27,792 nucleotides of DNA, taken from the IMG/VR virus record IMGVR_UViG_3300024430_000008, positions 1 to 27,792 of that record; one strand, written 5' to 3'. Made by a program: the position numbers and the translations under genes. The DNA is from a virus. Below, in pieces: positions 2,205 to 8,978 of this stretch (the first letter of the stretch is position 1; each line of letters starts with the position of its first letter). A model generated the notes under the pieces. That model was not told the origin of the DNA. It saw only the letters and a program-made list of their open reading frames with translations, and did no database searches.

Positions 2205-2540
2205 ATGAGTTCACTGACAGTGATCGAGCCCGGAGGCCGACGCCCCACCTTCGACACCCTTGAGGAGCGGTTGTGGTGGGCGCGAGCGTCCGTCGGTATC
2301 ACGCAACAGGAGCTGGCCGACGCCCTCGGCATCAGCAAGCGGACGGTGTCCAACTACGAGGCCGGCGACCAGCGTCCGAAGCTGAACCGCCTGCTCCTGT
2401 GGGCGAAGGCGACCGATGTGGACGCCGTCTGGCTGGCCGGAGACGACTACGGCGACCCCGGTGTTACCACCCAGGACAGCGCTCCCGTTTCCCGACGATC
2501 ACTGAGTTGTTTACCTGTTACCGGCCTACGGGCTGCGTGA
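2205..2540 (+). CDS. XRE-family repressor-like regulator
   Basis: A 111-residue protein with one Cro/CI-type HTH at residues ~20-60: LEERLWWARASVGITQQELADALGISKRTVSNYEAGDQRPKLNRLLLWAKA. The ATG at 2205 is preferred over an in-frame TTG at 2169, because it sits 6 bases after a -10-like GACACT and the TTG region is part of the operator/-35. There is no peptidase or dimerisation domain as in lambda CI; the last ~35 residues look unstructured and end GLRAA. It is coupled to integrase by a 4-base overlap, so repressor and integrase are likely co-expressed. By position this is the immunity repressor, which is inference; it could instead be a small control protein of the integrase operon. Confidence 0.8.
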   Translation: MSSLTVIEPGGRRPTFDTLEERLWWARASVGITQQELADALGISKRTVSNYEAGDQRPKLNRLLLWAKATDVDAVWLAGDDYGDPGVTTQDSAPVSRRSLSCLPVTGLRAA

Positions 2541-3487
2541 ACGTGACCATTGCCACGGTTACCGAGAGCGACCAACCCACCTCGGACCCTGGTTCCGGAA
2601 CCCTGGGTTGTCGTACCACTACCACCGTGGGGACACAGCTCGACACCGACGTGGTGAACTTCCTCTTTTGGTGTCGGGACATCCGGGGTCTGAGCCCAGC
2701 CACGATCCGCCTGCGTCGCACTGTGCTCGAGCGGCTGTCGGACACCGTCCATGTGCCGCTGCGGTTCGCCGAACCCATCCACCTCCAGCACTGGCAGCAG
2801 ATGGTGTTGCCGGGGAAGGCTGCGGAGACGCGCCGTTCGTACGTCAACGCCGTGGCCGCGTTCTACACGTGGCTGGTGCGGCAGCGGATCATCACGGAGA
2901 ACCCGGCGACGGCGTTGGACCGGCCACGGACGAAGAAGGGCCTGCCGCGGCCGATCGGTGAGGATGATCTGGCGCGGGCCATCAGCGAGGCGGGGCCGAA
3001 GCTGCGGGCGATGATCGTCCTCACCGCGTACGCGGGGTGCAGAGCGATGGAGGTAGCCGGCCTGCGCTGGTCGGATGTGCGGCAGGAGGCGGCCGGCGGC
3101 TGGTCCCTGTTCATCCAGGGCAAGGGCCGCAAGGAACGCCTGGTGCCCGTCGGGGACTACGTCATCGAGACGATCCGCGCCTACTCGTGGGGACGCCGGG
3201 GGCCGGTGTTCATCGGCCGCGACGGCCGGCAGATCACCCCGAACGCGGTGTCGCAGGCGATCAATTACCACTATCAGCGGCTGCGGATCGACGCGACGGC
3301 CCACTCGGGGCGGCACCGGTACATCTCGGTGGGGGTGGAGGAGTTGGGGGATGTGGTGTTGATGCAGCACATGGCGGGGCATGAGTCGTTGCAGACAACG
3401 CAGGTGTATGCGGCGTTTTCGCGGTCGAAGGCGGCGAAGCTGGTGCAGGCGTTGGATGACCGGGCGCACCGGGGCGGTCAGGGTTGA
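2537..3487 (+). CDS. int: Tyrosine recombinase, phage integrase
   Basis: A 316-residue site-specific recombinase that would integrate and excise the phage genome. The N-terminal SAM-like core-binding domain begins near LDTDVVNFLFWCRDIRGLSPATIR. The catalytic residues are all present: Arg169 (GCRAMEVAGLRW), Lys in GKGRKERLVPV, His256 and Arg259 (HSGRH), His282 (GHESLQTTQVY) and the nucleophile Tyr291. GTG 2537 overlaps the repressor stop by 4 bases. However, the first ~30 residues are Thr/Ser-rich and not integrase-like, and that DNA is full of inverted repeats. GTG 2627 (286 residues) is a serious alternative start, leaving 2541-2626 as a possible regulatory or attachment segment. A strong hairpin follows the stop. 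Confidence 0.93.
   Translation: MNVTIATVTESDQPTSDPGSGTLGCRTTTTVGTQLDTDVVNFLFWCRDIRGLSPATIRLRRTVLERLSDTVHVPLRFAEPIHLQHWQQMVLPGKAAETRRSYVNAVAAFYTWLVRQRIITENPATALDRPRTKKGLPRPIGEDDLARAISEAGPKLRAMIVLTAYAGCRAMEVAGLRWSDVRQEAAGGWSLFIQGKGRKERLVPVGDYVIETIRAYSWGRRGPVFIGRDGRQITPNAVSQAINYHYQRLRIDATAHSGRHRYISVGVEELGDVVLMQHMAGHESLQTTQVYAAFSRSKAAKLVQALDDRAHRGGQG
2573..2610. repeat. Nested inverted repeats before or within the int 5' end
   Basis: CAACCCA (2573-2579) pairs with TGGGTTG (2604-2610), enclosing the perfect palindrome GGTTCCGGAACC (2591-2602). The hexamer GTTACC occurs at 2463-2468, 2517-2522 and 2558-2563, with GTTTACC at 2509-2515. Such dense repeats next to an integrase suggest recombinase or regulator binding sites; which of these is unknown. 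Confidence 0.5.
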
Positions 3488-6154: not shown

Positions 6155-6400
6155 TCACTCCGACGGGTGACGAGTCCGCTCAGCCCAGGCGATCAGCTCG
6201 GAAGCGGTGAGGTCGAAGACAGGGGCGATGGCGGCGACGTCATCCAGGTCGAACCGGCCGGGCTCGTTGGTCTTGAACTTCCGGATGATCGAGGTGGCCG
6301 GCAGCCCGGACGCGGCGGCGAGGTCGCTGCGCTTCATGTCCCGAGCCTTCATCAGCTTCTCGATCAGAAGGCGGACGGCGTCGGAGAGCTGGTCGGTCAC
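6155..6400 (-). CDS. Second XRE-family regulator
   Basis: An 81-residue protein from GTG 6400: LSDAVRLLIEKLMKARDMKRSDLAAASGLPATSIIRKFKTNEPGRFDLDDVAAIAPVFDLTASELIAWAER. This is a single-domain Cro/CI-type HTH, with LAAASGLPATSIIRKF as the helix-turn-helix. TATGGT sits 6 bases before the GTG. It stands alone upstream of the nine-gene operon and next to the rightward GIY-YIG cassette, so it may regulate either; whether it or the 2205 protein is the true immunity repressor is open. Confidence 0.82.
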   Translation of the reverse strand: MTDQLSDAVRLLIEKLMKARDMKRSDLAAASGLPATSIIRKFKTNEPGRFDLDDVAAIAPVFDLTASELIAWAERTRHPSE

Positions 6401-6406
6401 GGCGAC

Positions 6407-6412
6407 ACCATA
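6407..6412 (-). promoter_or_regulatory. -10 element of the second XRE gene
   Basis: TATGGT on the minus strand fits TANNNT and ends 6 bases before GTG 6400, so transcription probably starts at or next to the start codon. No convincing -35 is visible. Confidence 0.45.
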
Positions 6413-6844
6413 GGGCAGGCGACCGGTTGTGGTCGCGAGACCCGAAGGCTTCACGTCGTCTACCGACTGTTCAACGCCGACGGGGATCTGCTCTACGTCG
6501 GCATGACCGGCAATCTCAGCCAGCGGCTCAGGTCCCATTCGTGGAACAAGCCGTGGTGGTCCGAGGTCGCTGCGGTCACGGAGCAGCCAGTCCCCGGCCA
6601 CTACACGGACGTGCTCAAGGTCGAGCGGCTTGCCATCGCCAAGGAGCACCCGCGCTACAACGTCCGCGACAGAGCGCCGGCTGAGCCTGTGCCGACACCG
6701 GACGGGCTGCCGCTGTTCATCGCTCTCGACAAGAGTCCCAGGGGACACGCGCAGTGGTTCTGCACCATCTGCAAGAAGGTGCTCCGCTGCTTCGATCTGG
6801 ATAGATGCCGCATCCGCCACGGCCACGTCGACGAGCTGTCGTGA
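6410..6844 (+). CDS. GIY-YIG nuclease-like protein, start unclear
   Basis: The frame encodes a GIY-YIG domain: VVYRLFNADGDLLYVGMTGNLSQRLRSH carries the two paired strands and the Arg, and LKVERLAIAKEHPRYNV carries the Glu and Asn of the family. The C-terminal WFCTICKKVLRCFDLDRC resembles a zinc knuckle. Members cut DNA in homing, repair or restriction. No ATG, GTG or TTG lies in frame between the XRE gene's start and the first conserved residue; 6410 is an in-frame ATA used here only as a provisional limit. Further canonical starts lie only antisense through the XRE gene. A lost start codon, a small indel or non-canonical initiation are all possible. The stop overlaps the next start by 4 bases. 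Confidence 0.7.
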   Translation: MGQATGCGRETRRLHVVYRLFNADGDLLYVGMTGNLSQRLRSHSWNKPWWSEVAAVTEQPVPGHYTDVLKVERLAIAKEHPRYNVRDRAPAEPVPTPDGLPLFIALDKSPRGHAQWFCTICKKVLRCFDLDRCRIRHGHVDELS

Positions 6845-7455
6845 GCATCTTCAAGCGCACCCTGTCGCAGCCCGCCGCGCCACCGTGGCAACCGCGGTGG
6901 GTCCGCCGGTTGCGGTTCACCGGCCGGGTGCTGGCGTGGTTCTGTCGCCGGTTCGGCCGGTTGTGTCGGTGGCTGGTGCGACACTCGACGGTCACGGCGA
7001 CCATCGTGGGCGGGGTTGGGCTGTGGATGACCATGTTGGCCCTGCGCACCGCACCCCGCGTCGCTCCGCTCGGACTCCTCCTCGTTGCGTGCTTGTGGTG
7101 GGTGACGTGGATGCAGTCGTTGGACGGCGGCAACCGGCCTCTCCTCGCGGCGTGGAGGCGGCTGACCTTGTACCGCAAGTGGTGGGACCCCATCTGCAAG
7201 AACGCCGGACTCAACTACGGGAACCTCGTCCCCGAGTTGCGGTCGGTGCGGGTGGATGGGGTGTTCGACGTGGTGGAGGCGCGGATGCTCGACGGGCAGC
7301 CGGCGACCCGCTGGTATGAGAAGCGGGAGTATCTGGCGGAGGCGTTCGAGGCCCGGTCCTGCACGGTGTACTCGGTCGGCGGGACCGATCGGACGGTGCT
7401 GTTGGAGTTCGCGGTCCGCCCCGGCCCGGCCGCGCCGGCCGACGGTCAGTGGTAA
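6841..7455 (+). CDS. Membrane protein resembling the N-terminus of FtsK/TraB-type translocases
   Basis: A 204-residue protein from GTG 6841, coupled to the GIY-YIG frame. A basic N-terminus is followed by two transmembrane helices (about 51-69 and 74-91). The soluble part, about 108-195, reads LYRKWWDPICKNAGL...LVPELRSVRVDGVFDVVEARMLDGQPATRWYEKREYLAEAFEARSCTVYSV...TVLLEFAV. This resembles the region between the membrane helices and the ATPase in actinobacterial conjugative FtsK/TraB proteins, but no Walker motif follows. The resemblance is from pattern recognition only. It may be a stand-alone membrane partner, an interference protein, or a decayed translocase. Confidence 0.7.
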   Translation: MSIFKRTLSQPAAPPWQPRWVRRLRFTGRVLAWFCRRFGRLCRWLVRHSTVTATIVGGVGLWMTMLALRTAPRVAPLGLLLVACLWWVTWMQSLDGGNRPLLAAWRRLTLYRKWWDPICKNAGLNYGNLVPELRSVRVDGVFDVVEARMLDGQPATRWYEKREYLAEAFEARSCTVYSVGGTDRTVLLEFAVRPGPAAPADGQW

Positions 7456-7577
7456 GCCGGCGGATGCGCCGTCGGGATTGGGTGTGGCTGCTGTTGTGGC
7501 TGGTGGTGATCCTCGCGGCCCGCTACTACCTGACGGGTGAGCCGCCGTGGCCGGCGTCGTGGCGGTGGCAGGCATGA
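7449..7577 (+). CDS. Trp-rich small membrane protein
   Basis: A 42-residue frame from GTG 7449 (overlapping the upstream TAA by 7 bases; ATG 7464 is an alternative) to TGA 7577. It has a basic start (RRMRRRD), one hydrophobic Trp-rich helix (WVWLLLWLVVILAARYYL) and a short PPWPASWRWQA tail. It is the last gene of the rightward cassette, 6 bases before the terminator stem. Function unknown. Confidence 0.6.
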   Translation: MVSRRMRRRDWVWLLLWLVVILAARYYLTGEPPWPASWRWQA

Positions 7578-7583
7578 CGAAAG

Positions 7584-7618
7584 GCCCCACCGTCTGCCGG
7601 GGACGCAGACGGTGGGGC
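7584..7618. terminator. Bidirectional terminator of converging operons
   Basis: GCCCCACCGTCTGC (7584-7597) pairs perfectly with GCAGACGGTGGGGC (7605-7618) across a 7-base loop. It lies between the rightward cassette and the converging leftward gene ending at 7635. ATTT follows on the plus strand and CTTTCG on the minus strand. Confidence 0.85.
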
Positions 7619-7634
7619 AGATTTAGGTTACGGA

Positions 7635-7898
7635 CTAAAAGGGACTTACTTTCCCGGTGCGGTGGGCGTCGGCGATGGCCCGCACCTTCGACCCTGCTTC
7701 CTTGTAGCCGGCGAGGGCGACGTGGCGGGCGACGCGCTCGAGGAGGTCGGCGTTGTGTTCGGCGAGCCAGCGGGTGTTGACGGGGTCGGCGGCGAGGAAG
7801 CGGACGAGGCGGCGGCGTTGCTCGACGGGGCCGATTTTGGGGTCGCGGTCGGTGGCGCGCCGGTTGAACTGCTGCGGTGGCGGTTCGGCGGTGGTCAC
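7635..7898 (-). CDS. Hypothetical protein, end of the late operon
   Basis: An 87-residue basic protein from GTG 7898, with AGGAG 7 bases upstream. The N-terminus is polar and proline-rich (TTAEPPPQQFNRRATDRDPKIGP); the rest is helical (EQRRRLVRFLAADPVNTRWLAEHNADLLERVARHVALAGY). No family recognised. It is the last leftward gene before the bidirectional terminator. Confidence 0.7.
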   Translation of the reverse strand: MTTAEPPPQQFNRRATDRDPKIGPVEQRRRLVRFLAADPVNTRWLAEHNADLLERVARHVALAGYKEAGSKVRAIADAHRTGKVSPF

Positions 7899-7906
7899 GA
7901 GCGCTC

Positions 7907-8380
7907 CTAGAAGATCGTGTGTGCAAGCCAGTCCAAGCCGTAGACGGCGGCACCCACGGCGGCGAGCAGGACGAGGGTGATGGCAAGAACCTTCGGTGAG
8001 TCCCTTAGCCAGCCCGGCCGGCGTGCGGGATTATTGAGGGCCGCCCAACGCACCGCCGTCCACATCAGCCAGCGGCGGACGAAACCGACGCCCTCCTCGT
8101 CCATGACGCGGCGGAAGATCCCGTCGGCATCAGAGCTGCTGACGGCGCAGTTGCCGGCCGCGAGTTGGATGCAGAAGTCGTCGTGCAGTACGGCTGCGCC
8201 GGTCCAGGTGCCGGTGGCTTGGACGAACGATTGCAGCCAGCGGGGCACTGAGGCGAAGTCTGTGACGAGGCCGTCGTGGACGGTGAAGTGATCCACGGCT
8301 CCTTGGTAGGAGAGGGGTGCGATCAGTTCCCAGTGCGTCGGGCTAACCCGCCTCACTACGAGGGGCGTCGTGAACGGCAT
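7907..8380 (-). CDS. DUF1353 protein with C-terminal membrane segment
   Basis: A 157-residue protein from ATG 8380 with a GGAGGGGG ribosome-binding site. The DUF1353 signature is clear: LVTDFASVPRWL, then AVLHDDFC, then DGIFRRVMDEEGVGFVRRWLMWTAVR. One hydrophobic helix follows near residues 128-152 (VLAITLVLLAAVGAAVYGLDWL). DUF1353 proteins are frequent in phages near lysis genes; the HD-like residues hint at a hydrolase but the activity is not established to my knowledge. Its start lies inside the end of the HNH gene (38-base overlap). Confidence 0.85.
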   Translation of the reverse strand: MPFTTPLVVRRVSPTHWELIAPLSYQGAVDHFTVHDGLVTDFASVPRWLQSFVQATGTWTGAAVLHDDFCIQLAAGNCAVSSSDADGIFRRVMDEEGVGFVRRWLMWTAVRWAALNNPARRPGWLRDSPKVLAITLVLLAAVGAAVYGLDWLAHTIF

Positions 8381-8978
8381 GCCGAGCCCCCTCCATGATC
8401 GCGGCGTACTTGATATCGGACGTGACTTGAAGATCGAAGGGCAGGCCCCTGCGCTTGGCGTTCTGCTCAGAGCCGGCAGCGCGGTGGCAGGCTAGGCACT
8501 GCCGACGACCATTCCGCAGCGCACCACTGCTCAGGTTAGGCAAGGCAAGAAGATGCCCGCGGGGGCACGTTCCCTTCCTTGTTTGCGCGTGCGTTCGGTG
8601 GGCGACCGCGTCGCGCTGATTCCCCGCCCTGGTGTCCCATCGGAGATTCGTCGAGTGGTTGTTCTCGGGGTTCCCGTCGTTATGACAGCATTCCTGGTCC
8701 GAGGGGCGTGGGCCGACGAAGGCTCTAAGGACCAGTGCGTGCACCGCCACAGGTCGCCTGTCGTCGCCTTGGCACAACGTCACGAACAGATGGCGGCGTT
8801 TCGTCATCCTGCTGGGCTTGAGAATCCGGCCTCGCATGCGGACCGGGCGCCGGCCGGTCGGTCCATCCCGACGAGTAATCATACGGTCGAGGCTGCGCAC
8901 CCGACCGTGGTCGCTCACCTCGTATAACCCTTCCCATCCGGGAACGGGTAGCCATCGTTCGGCGGTAGCATCGGACAC
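8343..8978 (-). CDS. NUMOD4/HNH homing-type endonuclease
   Basis: A 211-residue protein from GTG 8978 with AGGAG upstream. The N-terminal NUMOD4 domain (ERWLPVPGWEGLYEVSDHGRVRSL, ~8-31) is followed by an HNH domain (VHALVLRAFVGPRPSDQECCHNDGNPENNHSTNLRWDTRAGNQRDAV, ~79-125). The C-terminal CPRGHLL...CLACHR supplies two Cys pairs for a zinc site. These free-standing endonucleases nick or cut phage DNA and spread their own gene. Its last 38 bases overlap the DUF1353 start, and a hairpin precedes it, which fits insertion between lysis genes. Confidence 0.92.
   Translation of the reverse strand: MSDATAERWLPVPGWEGLYEVSDHGRVRSLDRMITRRDGPTGRRPVRMRGRILKPSRMTKRRHLFVTLCQGDDRRPVAVHALVLRAFVGPRPSDQECCHNDGNPENNHSTNLRWDTRAGNQRDAVAHRTHAQTRKGTCPRGHLLALPNLSSGALRNGRRQCLACHRAAGSEQNAKRRGLPFDLQVTSDIKYAAIMEGARHAVHDAPRSEAG

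What the first reader, a model, noticed from the sequence alone, without database searches (positions are those of the whole stretch)
6410..7577. Rightward accessory cassette: GIY-YIG nuclease, TraB-like membrane protein, Trp-rich peptide
Three coupled genes stand against the surrounding transcription, next to an XRE regulator and closed by a strong terminator. A nuclease with a zinc-knuckle tail beside a two-helix membrane protein that resembles a DNA translocase without its ATPase suggests a membrane-linked DNA-cutting system. It might act in superinfection exclusion or defence against incoming phage or plasmid DNA. I know of no described system with this composition; the functional link is inference from gene order.
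Basis: inference. Interest (0 to 1): 0.62.

Follow-up and report, generated by a model that had tools for sequence, protein, structure and literature searches.

The report
Phage cassette: nuclease plus pump's anchor
A temperate actinobacterial phage carries a small operon pairing a DNA-cutting enzyme with a free-standing copy of the membrane-anchor end of the pump that soil actinobacteria use to pass DNA between cells, which might guard the host against incoming DNA, although the link between the two proteins is untested and seen only once.

Summary
Window 6449-7577 carries three + strand ORFs against leftward neighbours, beside an XRE regulator and closed by a 14-bp hairpin. ORF1 is a GIY-YIG nuclease: Pfam/PHROG hits, UvrC-like fold, all catalytic residues present. 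Its Cys/His tail is unlike those of its relatives. ORF2 is truly homologous to the N-terminal membrane and pre-ATPase domain of FtsK-type conjugation translocases (Tra/TraB) of actinomycete integrative elements: a profile built without the window scores it 66 bits against 8 for the best of 2000 shuffles. It ends where the ATPase would begin. Two Nocardia elements carry the same domain as a separate gene beside an FtsK ATPase gene, so free-standing forms exist. ORF3 is a plausible 37-42-residue membrane peptide but unproven.

The set was found nowhere else: 55 viral GIY-YIG loci and 50 records with related terminases lack ORF2, and the phage collection gave no match. A joint function is inference. 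ORF1 lacks an ATG, GTG or TTG start in frame, so it may carry an assembly indel, use a rare start, or be decaying. Best mechanism (0.33): prophage-expressed membrane-coupled cutting of incoming DNA, resembling SNIPE in action but not a member. Rivals: a poison for conjugation pumps, or two unrelated cargo genes.

The parts
6155..6400 (-). XRE-type repressor/Cro-like regulator, 81 aa, divergent from the cassette
   Evidence: HTH_26 8.9e-9; phrog_4583 transcriptional repressor 1.4e-7
6401..6448 (.). 48-bp gap between the XRE start and the GIY-YIG fold; no in-frame ATG/GTG/TTG for the nuclease
6449..6844 (+). GIY-YIG nuclease ORF (131 aa from the first residue before the fold; true start unknown)
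   Evidence: PF01541 2.3e-6; phrog_3312 4e-17; AF2 pLDDT about 97 over residues 1-70; Foldseek to UvrC GIY-YIG 1yd6 E 4.6e-4, prob 1.00; Y5, Y16, R26, H30, E59, N71 present
6755..6826 (+). Cys/His-rich tail of the nuclease (C-x2-C-x5-C-x5-C-x3-H-x-H), zinc-knuckle-like
   Evidence: relatives carry other tails such as GntR, sigma/HTH or other Cys-rich segments
6841..7455 (+). 204-aa free-standing N-terminal domain of a Tra/TraB-FtsK-type conjugation translocase; no ATPase
   Evidence: tblastn to plasmid/AICE FtsK proteins; leave-window-out HMM 66 bits vs at most 8.3 for 2000 shuffles; no PF01580 in the record
6988..7104 (+). transmembrane hairpin (residues 50-68 and 70-88), basic flanks suggest both ends cytoplasmic
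7147..7419 (+). conserved post-membrane, pre-ATPase domain (YR+.W..GL..VP.L..V..D..RMLDGQ..W..L...F...C.V..L.F)
7449..7577 (+). Trp-rich single-TM peptide ORF, 42 aa from GTG 7449 or 37 aa from ATG 7464; reality uncertain
   Evidence: no phage homologue
7584..7618 (.). perfect 14-bp hairpin between convergent operons, likely shared terminator

Best explanation
Shown: the cassette is a translationally coupled pair (overlapping reading frames), a GIY-YIG nuclease followed by a free-standing membrane/oligomerisation domain homologous to the N-terminus of a Tra/TraB (FtsK-type) conjugation translocase, with a possible third membrane peptide, in the accessory zone between lysis genes and regulator of a temperate actinophage. 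Inferred mechanism: it is expressed from the prophage under control of the adjacent XRE region. The Tra-type domain forms an assembly in the cytoplasmic membrane through the domain that precedes the motor in FtsK-type hexamers. The nuclease, with its Cys/His tail, is held at or recruited to that assembly and cuts double-stranded DNA entering there (phage DNA at injection or conjugating plasmid/AICE DNA), so the lysogen excludes competitors while its own nucleoid is spared by location. This works like SNIPE but is split over two proteins.
For: Homology of ORF2 to translocase N-domains. Nuclease fold and catalytic residues intact. 4-bp stop/start overlap and codon usage that fits the phage. Position against the lytic transcription and next to the regulator. 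[quoted passage not shown]), and Charlie excludes DNA injection with one membrane protein. SNIPE shows that a membrane-held GIY-YIG nuclease can cut phage DNA at injection (PMC13190303). A relative of this GIY-YIG sits between MobC and the relaxase in a Curtobacterium plasmid, so the family can keep company with DNA-transfer genes.
Against: The pair was found only here. The nuclease lacks a canonical start codon. In other phages the next gene is usually a cytoplasmic replication or DNA-binding protein, not a membrane protein. No physical or expression evidence exists. The single-sequence structure of ORF2 failed (pLDDT 49), so oligomerisation is inferred only from homology.
Confidence: 0.33

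Rival explanations
1. ORF2 alone is the active part: a decoy subunit that co-assembles through its pre-ATPase domain with the Tra/FtsK translocase of resident or incoming AICEs and plasmids and poisons their DNA transfer (fertility inhibition). The nuclease is a neighbour with its own role.
For: ORF2 is exactly the N-terminal piece of such translocases and stops before the motor. In two Nocardia elements a free-standing N-domain is encoded next to an FtsK-family ATPase, as expected if it co-assembles with the motor in trans.
Against: The gain for a prophage in blocking conjugation is less direct than blocking phages. Identity to any known Tra is only about 20-30%, so co-assembly with a given motor is uncertain. 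The tight coupling with the nuclease is left unexplained.
Confidence: 0.2
2. Two unrelated cargo genes: a GIY-YIG nuclease of the modular phage family (homing-like or a helper in replication/recombination) next to a captured, possibly decaying, fragment of a translocase gene. No joint function.
For: The pair occurs nowhere else in the searched records. The nuclease has no ATG/GTG/TTG start. This GIY-YIG family is scattered across phages with swapped tails and varied neighbours. An HNH/NUMOD4 homing-type gene lies 0.8 kb beyond the cassette (8343-8978).
Against: The reading frames overlap by 4 bp, the 204-aa ORF has full coding usage and ends at a domain border, catalytic residues are intact, and free-standing N-domains exist elsewhere.
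Confidence: 0.32
3. The cassette is the stub of the phage's or a co-resident element's own DNA-transfer module, and an ATPase partner lies in the part of the genome missing from this 27.8-kb record.
For: The record is a fragment; its replication arm is absent. Split N-domain plus FtsK pairs exist in Nocardia.
Against: No PF01580 in the record. No FtsK-type transfer gene is annotated in the nearest named phage, Hum25. The two Nocardia pairs lie within 0.7 kb of each other, unlike here.
Confidence: 0.07

Closest known systems
Tra/TraB-type FtsK-SpoIIIE conjugation translocases of AICEs and actinomycete plasmids (pMR2 clade; PMC3218068)
   Same: N-terminal membrane segment(s) and conserved pre-ATPase domain are homologous
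   Different: No Walker ATPase and no C-terminal part; lies in a phage and follows a nuclease gene
Free-standing Tra N-domain proteins in Nocardia elements (L013 3743-4327; L014 3716-4507)
   Same: Same domain as a separate gene without a motor
   Different: An FtsK-family ATPase gene lies close upstream or directly downstream there; none here
SNIPE (TM-DUF4041-GIY-YIG membrane nuclease; PMC13190303)
   Same: GIY-YIG nuclease with a link to the membrane; proposed action on entering DNA
   Different: SNIPE is one protein with DUF4041; here two proteins, no DUF4041, and a translocase-derived membrane part
CarolAnn gp43/gp44, Sbash gp30/gp31, Butters gp30/gp31 prophage defence pairs
   Same: Cytoplasmic plus membrane protein in the central accessory zone of an actinobacterial temperate phage
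   Different: Those membrane parts have four TM helices and their cytoplasmic partners show weak DUF4747 matches; no nuclease is described
Modular GIY-YIG endonucleases of actinophages (phrog_3312)
   Same: Same nuclease domain; most relatives 26-49% identical
   Different: Other tails, and cytoplasmic replication or DNA-binding neighbours in most

Membership tests
GIY-YIG nuclease superfamily | GIY-YIG catalytic domain | tested here: met
   PF01541 28.2 bits over cut-off 22.6; UvrC-like fold
GIY-YIG nuclease superfamily | catalytic Tyr, Tyr, Arg, Glu, Asn | tested here: met
   Y5, Y16, R26, E59 invariant and N71 at least 90% in the 31 sequences aligned; aligned to UvrC
Tra/TraB-FtsK conjugation translocase | N-terminal membrane and pre-ATPase domain | tested here: met
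   66 bits with a leave-window-out HMM
Tra/TraB-FtsK conjugation translocase | FtsK_SpoIIIE ATPase motor | tested here: not met
   No Pfam hit in ORF2 and no PF01580 anywhere in the record
SNIPE | DUF4041 domain | tested here: not met
   Not found in any cassette protein by Pfam at E up to 1
SNIPE | GIY-YIG domain | tested here: met
SNIPE | transmembrane anchor in the same protein as the nuclease | tested here: not met
   No hydrophobic segment in the GIY-YIG ORF; note that 34% of SNIPE homologues also lack a predicted TM (PMC13190303)
SNIPE | membrane localisation and cutting of DNA at injection | not testable with these tools
   needs experiment
CarolAnn/Sbash (RexAB-like) prophage defence | four-TM membrane partner and DUF4747-like cytoplasmic partner | tested here: not met
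   Two hydrophobic segments; no DUF4747 by Pfam; features taken from PMC6426606
GIY-YIG homing endonuclease | location in or beside an intron/intein or interrupted gene, with NUMOD-type DNA-binding tail | tested here: inconclusive
   No NUMOD in the nuclease; no interrupted gene recognised; no empty site available for comparison

The most novel reading that the evidence does not exclude
A two-part membrane DNA-interception system in which a temperate phage has turned the membrane/assembly domain of a conjugation motor into a docking ring for a GIY-YIG nuclease, cutting double-stranded DNA as it crosses the membrane, possibly aimed at conjugating elements as well as phages.
Probability: 0.2. 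Interest if true: 0.75.

Novelty: new variant of a known kind. Interest (0 to 1): 0.45.

Why it matters
Free-standing N-domains of the Tra/FtsK conjugation motor are not named in any family library searched here, yet they occur in at least two Nocardia elements and one phage. If the phage form binds the motor or carries a nuclease to the membrane, it would tie actinobacterial conjugation to phage exclusion and give a two-protein counterpart of SNIPE that can be tested by cloning two small genes.

Tried and rejected
AlphaFold2 of ORF2 from a single sequence: pLDDT 49, Foldseek meaningless. Profile of ORF2 family against PDB sequences: nothing. Pfam, PHROGs, NCBIfam and PADLOC: no family for ORF2. 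Viral-contig scans with ORF2 alone or in two alignments: no relative. Genome-contig scans with ORF2 and with terminase: none, and no host genome handle could be had, so whole host genomes were not surveyed. Comparing 14 terminase-related records at the equivalent locus: apart from the tape measure gene and a few scattered weak matches the accessory region does not match, so they say nothing about the site. PADLOC PDC-S14 hit (1e-6) rests on the GIY-YIG domain only and is not taken as membership. A 25-nt repeat shared by the nuclease tail and ORF2 coding (20/25) is weak: 2 of 200 codon shuffles reach it. L053/G010 as a conjugative element: membrane-protein cluster around its GIY-YIG, but its type stayed unclear.

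Full report
WHERE IT LIES. The window is a 27,792-base IMG/VR virus record, probably a fragment. It encodes a siphovirus-type temperate actinophage: large terminase, portal, protease, capsid, tape measure, minor tail, endolysin on the minus strand, and an integrase (2273-3487) on the plus strand. The terminase is 66% identical to Arthrobacter phage Hum25, but the accessory region has no near relative. The cassette stands between the lysis side (HNH/NUMOD4 8343-8978, DUF1353 7907-8380, ORF 7635-7898) and an XRE regulator (6155-6400), and points against both.

THE NUCLEASE. ORF1 holds a GIY-YIG domain (PF01541 2.3e-6; phrog_3312 4e-17). A model made with 30 relatives from viral contigs has pLDDT about 97 over the domain and matches the UvrC GIY-YIG nuclease. 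The catalytic set Y5, Y16, R26, E59 is invariant across the 31 sequences and N71 nearly so. The tail has C105, C108, C114, C120, H124, H126; the model gives no fold for it. Tails differ widely among relatives (GntR, sigma/HTH, other Cys-rich segments), so this is a modular nuclease family. The frame has no ATG, GTG or TTG between 6167 and 6503; the fold starts with a strand at residue 2, and relatives start 2-8 residues upstream of it. A sequence error, a rare start codon and decay are all possible.

THE TRANSLOCASE-LIKE PROTEIN. ORF2 (204 aa) matched three plasmid-collection records (E 8e-4 to 2e-3), all of which proved to encode proteins with an FtsK-type motor further on (the Streptosporangium one falls just below the Pfam cut-off). 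The M. rosaria plasmid pMR2 is the name-giver of a clade of AICE Tra proteins (PMC3218068). I extracted nine further N-terminal domains. A profile of those nine, without the window, scored ORF2 at 66 bits; the best of 2000 shuffled copies reached 8. The alignment runs from the membrane segments through the conserved stretch YR+.W..GL..VP.L..V..D..RMLDGQ..W..L..F..C.V..L.F. ORF2 ends where the others continue into the linker and Walker motor. The post-membrane part is also seen, without membrane segment, in front of the ATPase of the N. farcinica FtsK (21 bits against about 6 for the best shuffle). I infer that it corresponds to the pre-motor (alpha) domain of FtsK, but no solved structure could be matched to prove this.

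FREE-STANDING FORMS ELSEWHERE. Nocardia sp. NBC_01503 (L014) encodes the domain alone (263 aa) with its 3' end overlapping an FtsK gene. N. farcinica NCTC11134 (L013) encodes it alone (194 aa) between an FtsK gene and a RepSA gene in an AICE with DUF2637 and integrase genes. Thus the domain can be a separate protein, in both cases near a motor. No motor is in the window record.

CO-OCCURRENCE. 55 viral GIY-YIG loci contain no such domain within 4 kb; 36 whole records, 29 of them viral, and 50 records with related terminases contain none. The same profile does ring in the plasmid records that hold the domain, so the search works. In most phages the gene after the GIY-YIG gene is a cytoplasmic protein such as a replication initiator. 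One relative lies between MobC and a relaxase, with overlapping genes, in a Curtobacterium plasmid. Host genomes could not be surveyed, so rarity is only shown for phages, plasmids and virus records.

MECHANISM. Two features favour a joint role: the 4-bp overlap with coding usage that fits the phage, and the site. Studies of actinobacterial prophages report lysogenically expressed defence pairs of a cytoplasmic and a membrane protein in the central region by the immunity and integration genes (PMC6426606, PMC6426596, PMC7542560). SNIPE shows that a membrane-held GIY-YIG nuclease can cut phage DNA as it enters and that taking away its membrane part makes it toxic to the host (PMC13190303). I therefore favour membrane-coupled cutting of incoming DNA (0.33). 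The alternatives are a poison for conjugation motors (0.2), for which the Nocardia split forms speak, and unrelated cargo (0.32), for which the single occurrence and the missing start speak. Steps shown: gene identities, overlap, domain homology, active-site residues. Steps inferred: expression in lysogens, membrane assembly, binding of the nuclease, target.

ORF3 AND THE HAIRPIN. ORF3 could encode a Trp-rich single-TM peptide, but an open frame of this length is expected by chance in 44% of cases at this base composition and it has no phage homologue. The 14-bp hairpin 7584-7618 is well beyond chance and lies between convergent genes, so it probably ends both transcripts.

VERDICT. The system claim stays a hypothesis. 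It is a new arrangement of known parts.

Noticed in passing
window 6401-6503: The GIY-YIG frame has no ATG/GTG/TTG start although its fold begins at about 6452; GTG 6429 is in another frame. Possible indel in the assembly, rare start, or gene decay.
   Followed up: partly
L013 3743-4327 and L014 3716-4507: Free-standing Tra/FtsK N-domain proteins in two Nocardia elements, each near an FtsK-family ATPase gene: an unnamed family; the window member has no Pfam, PHROG or NCBIfam model.
   Followed up: partly
L008 4570-7027: Curtobacterium plasmid D26b: MobC, GIY-YIG nuclease and relaxase genes overlap in one operon.
   Followed up: partly
L053 2364-6347 (G010): IMG/VR record of 127.7 kb with a GIY-YIG gene inside a cluster of membrane-protein genes; the kind of element is unclear.
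   Followed up: partly
window 8343-8978: HNH endonuclease with NUMOD4, homing-type, 0.8 kb beyond the cassette's hairpin.
   Followed up: no
window 6753-6777 and 7178-7202: 25-nt stretch shared 20/25 between the nuclease tail and ORF2 coding sequence; reached by 2 of 200 codon shuffles.
   Followed up: yes
L004 and L013: PLSDB records labelled as plasmids are chromosome-sized (11.85 Mb Nonomuraea; 2.66 Mb N. farcinica).
   Followed up: no
L002 1-9428: The 16.3-kb Streptosporangium plasmid record carries two copies of the same FtsK, ParA and hypothetical gene block.
   Followed up: no
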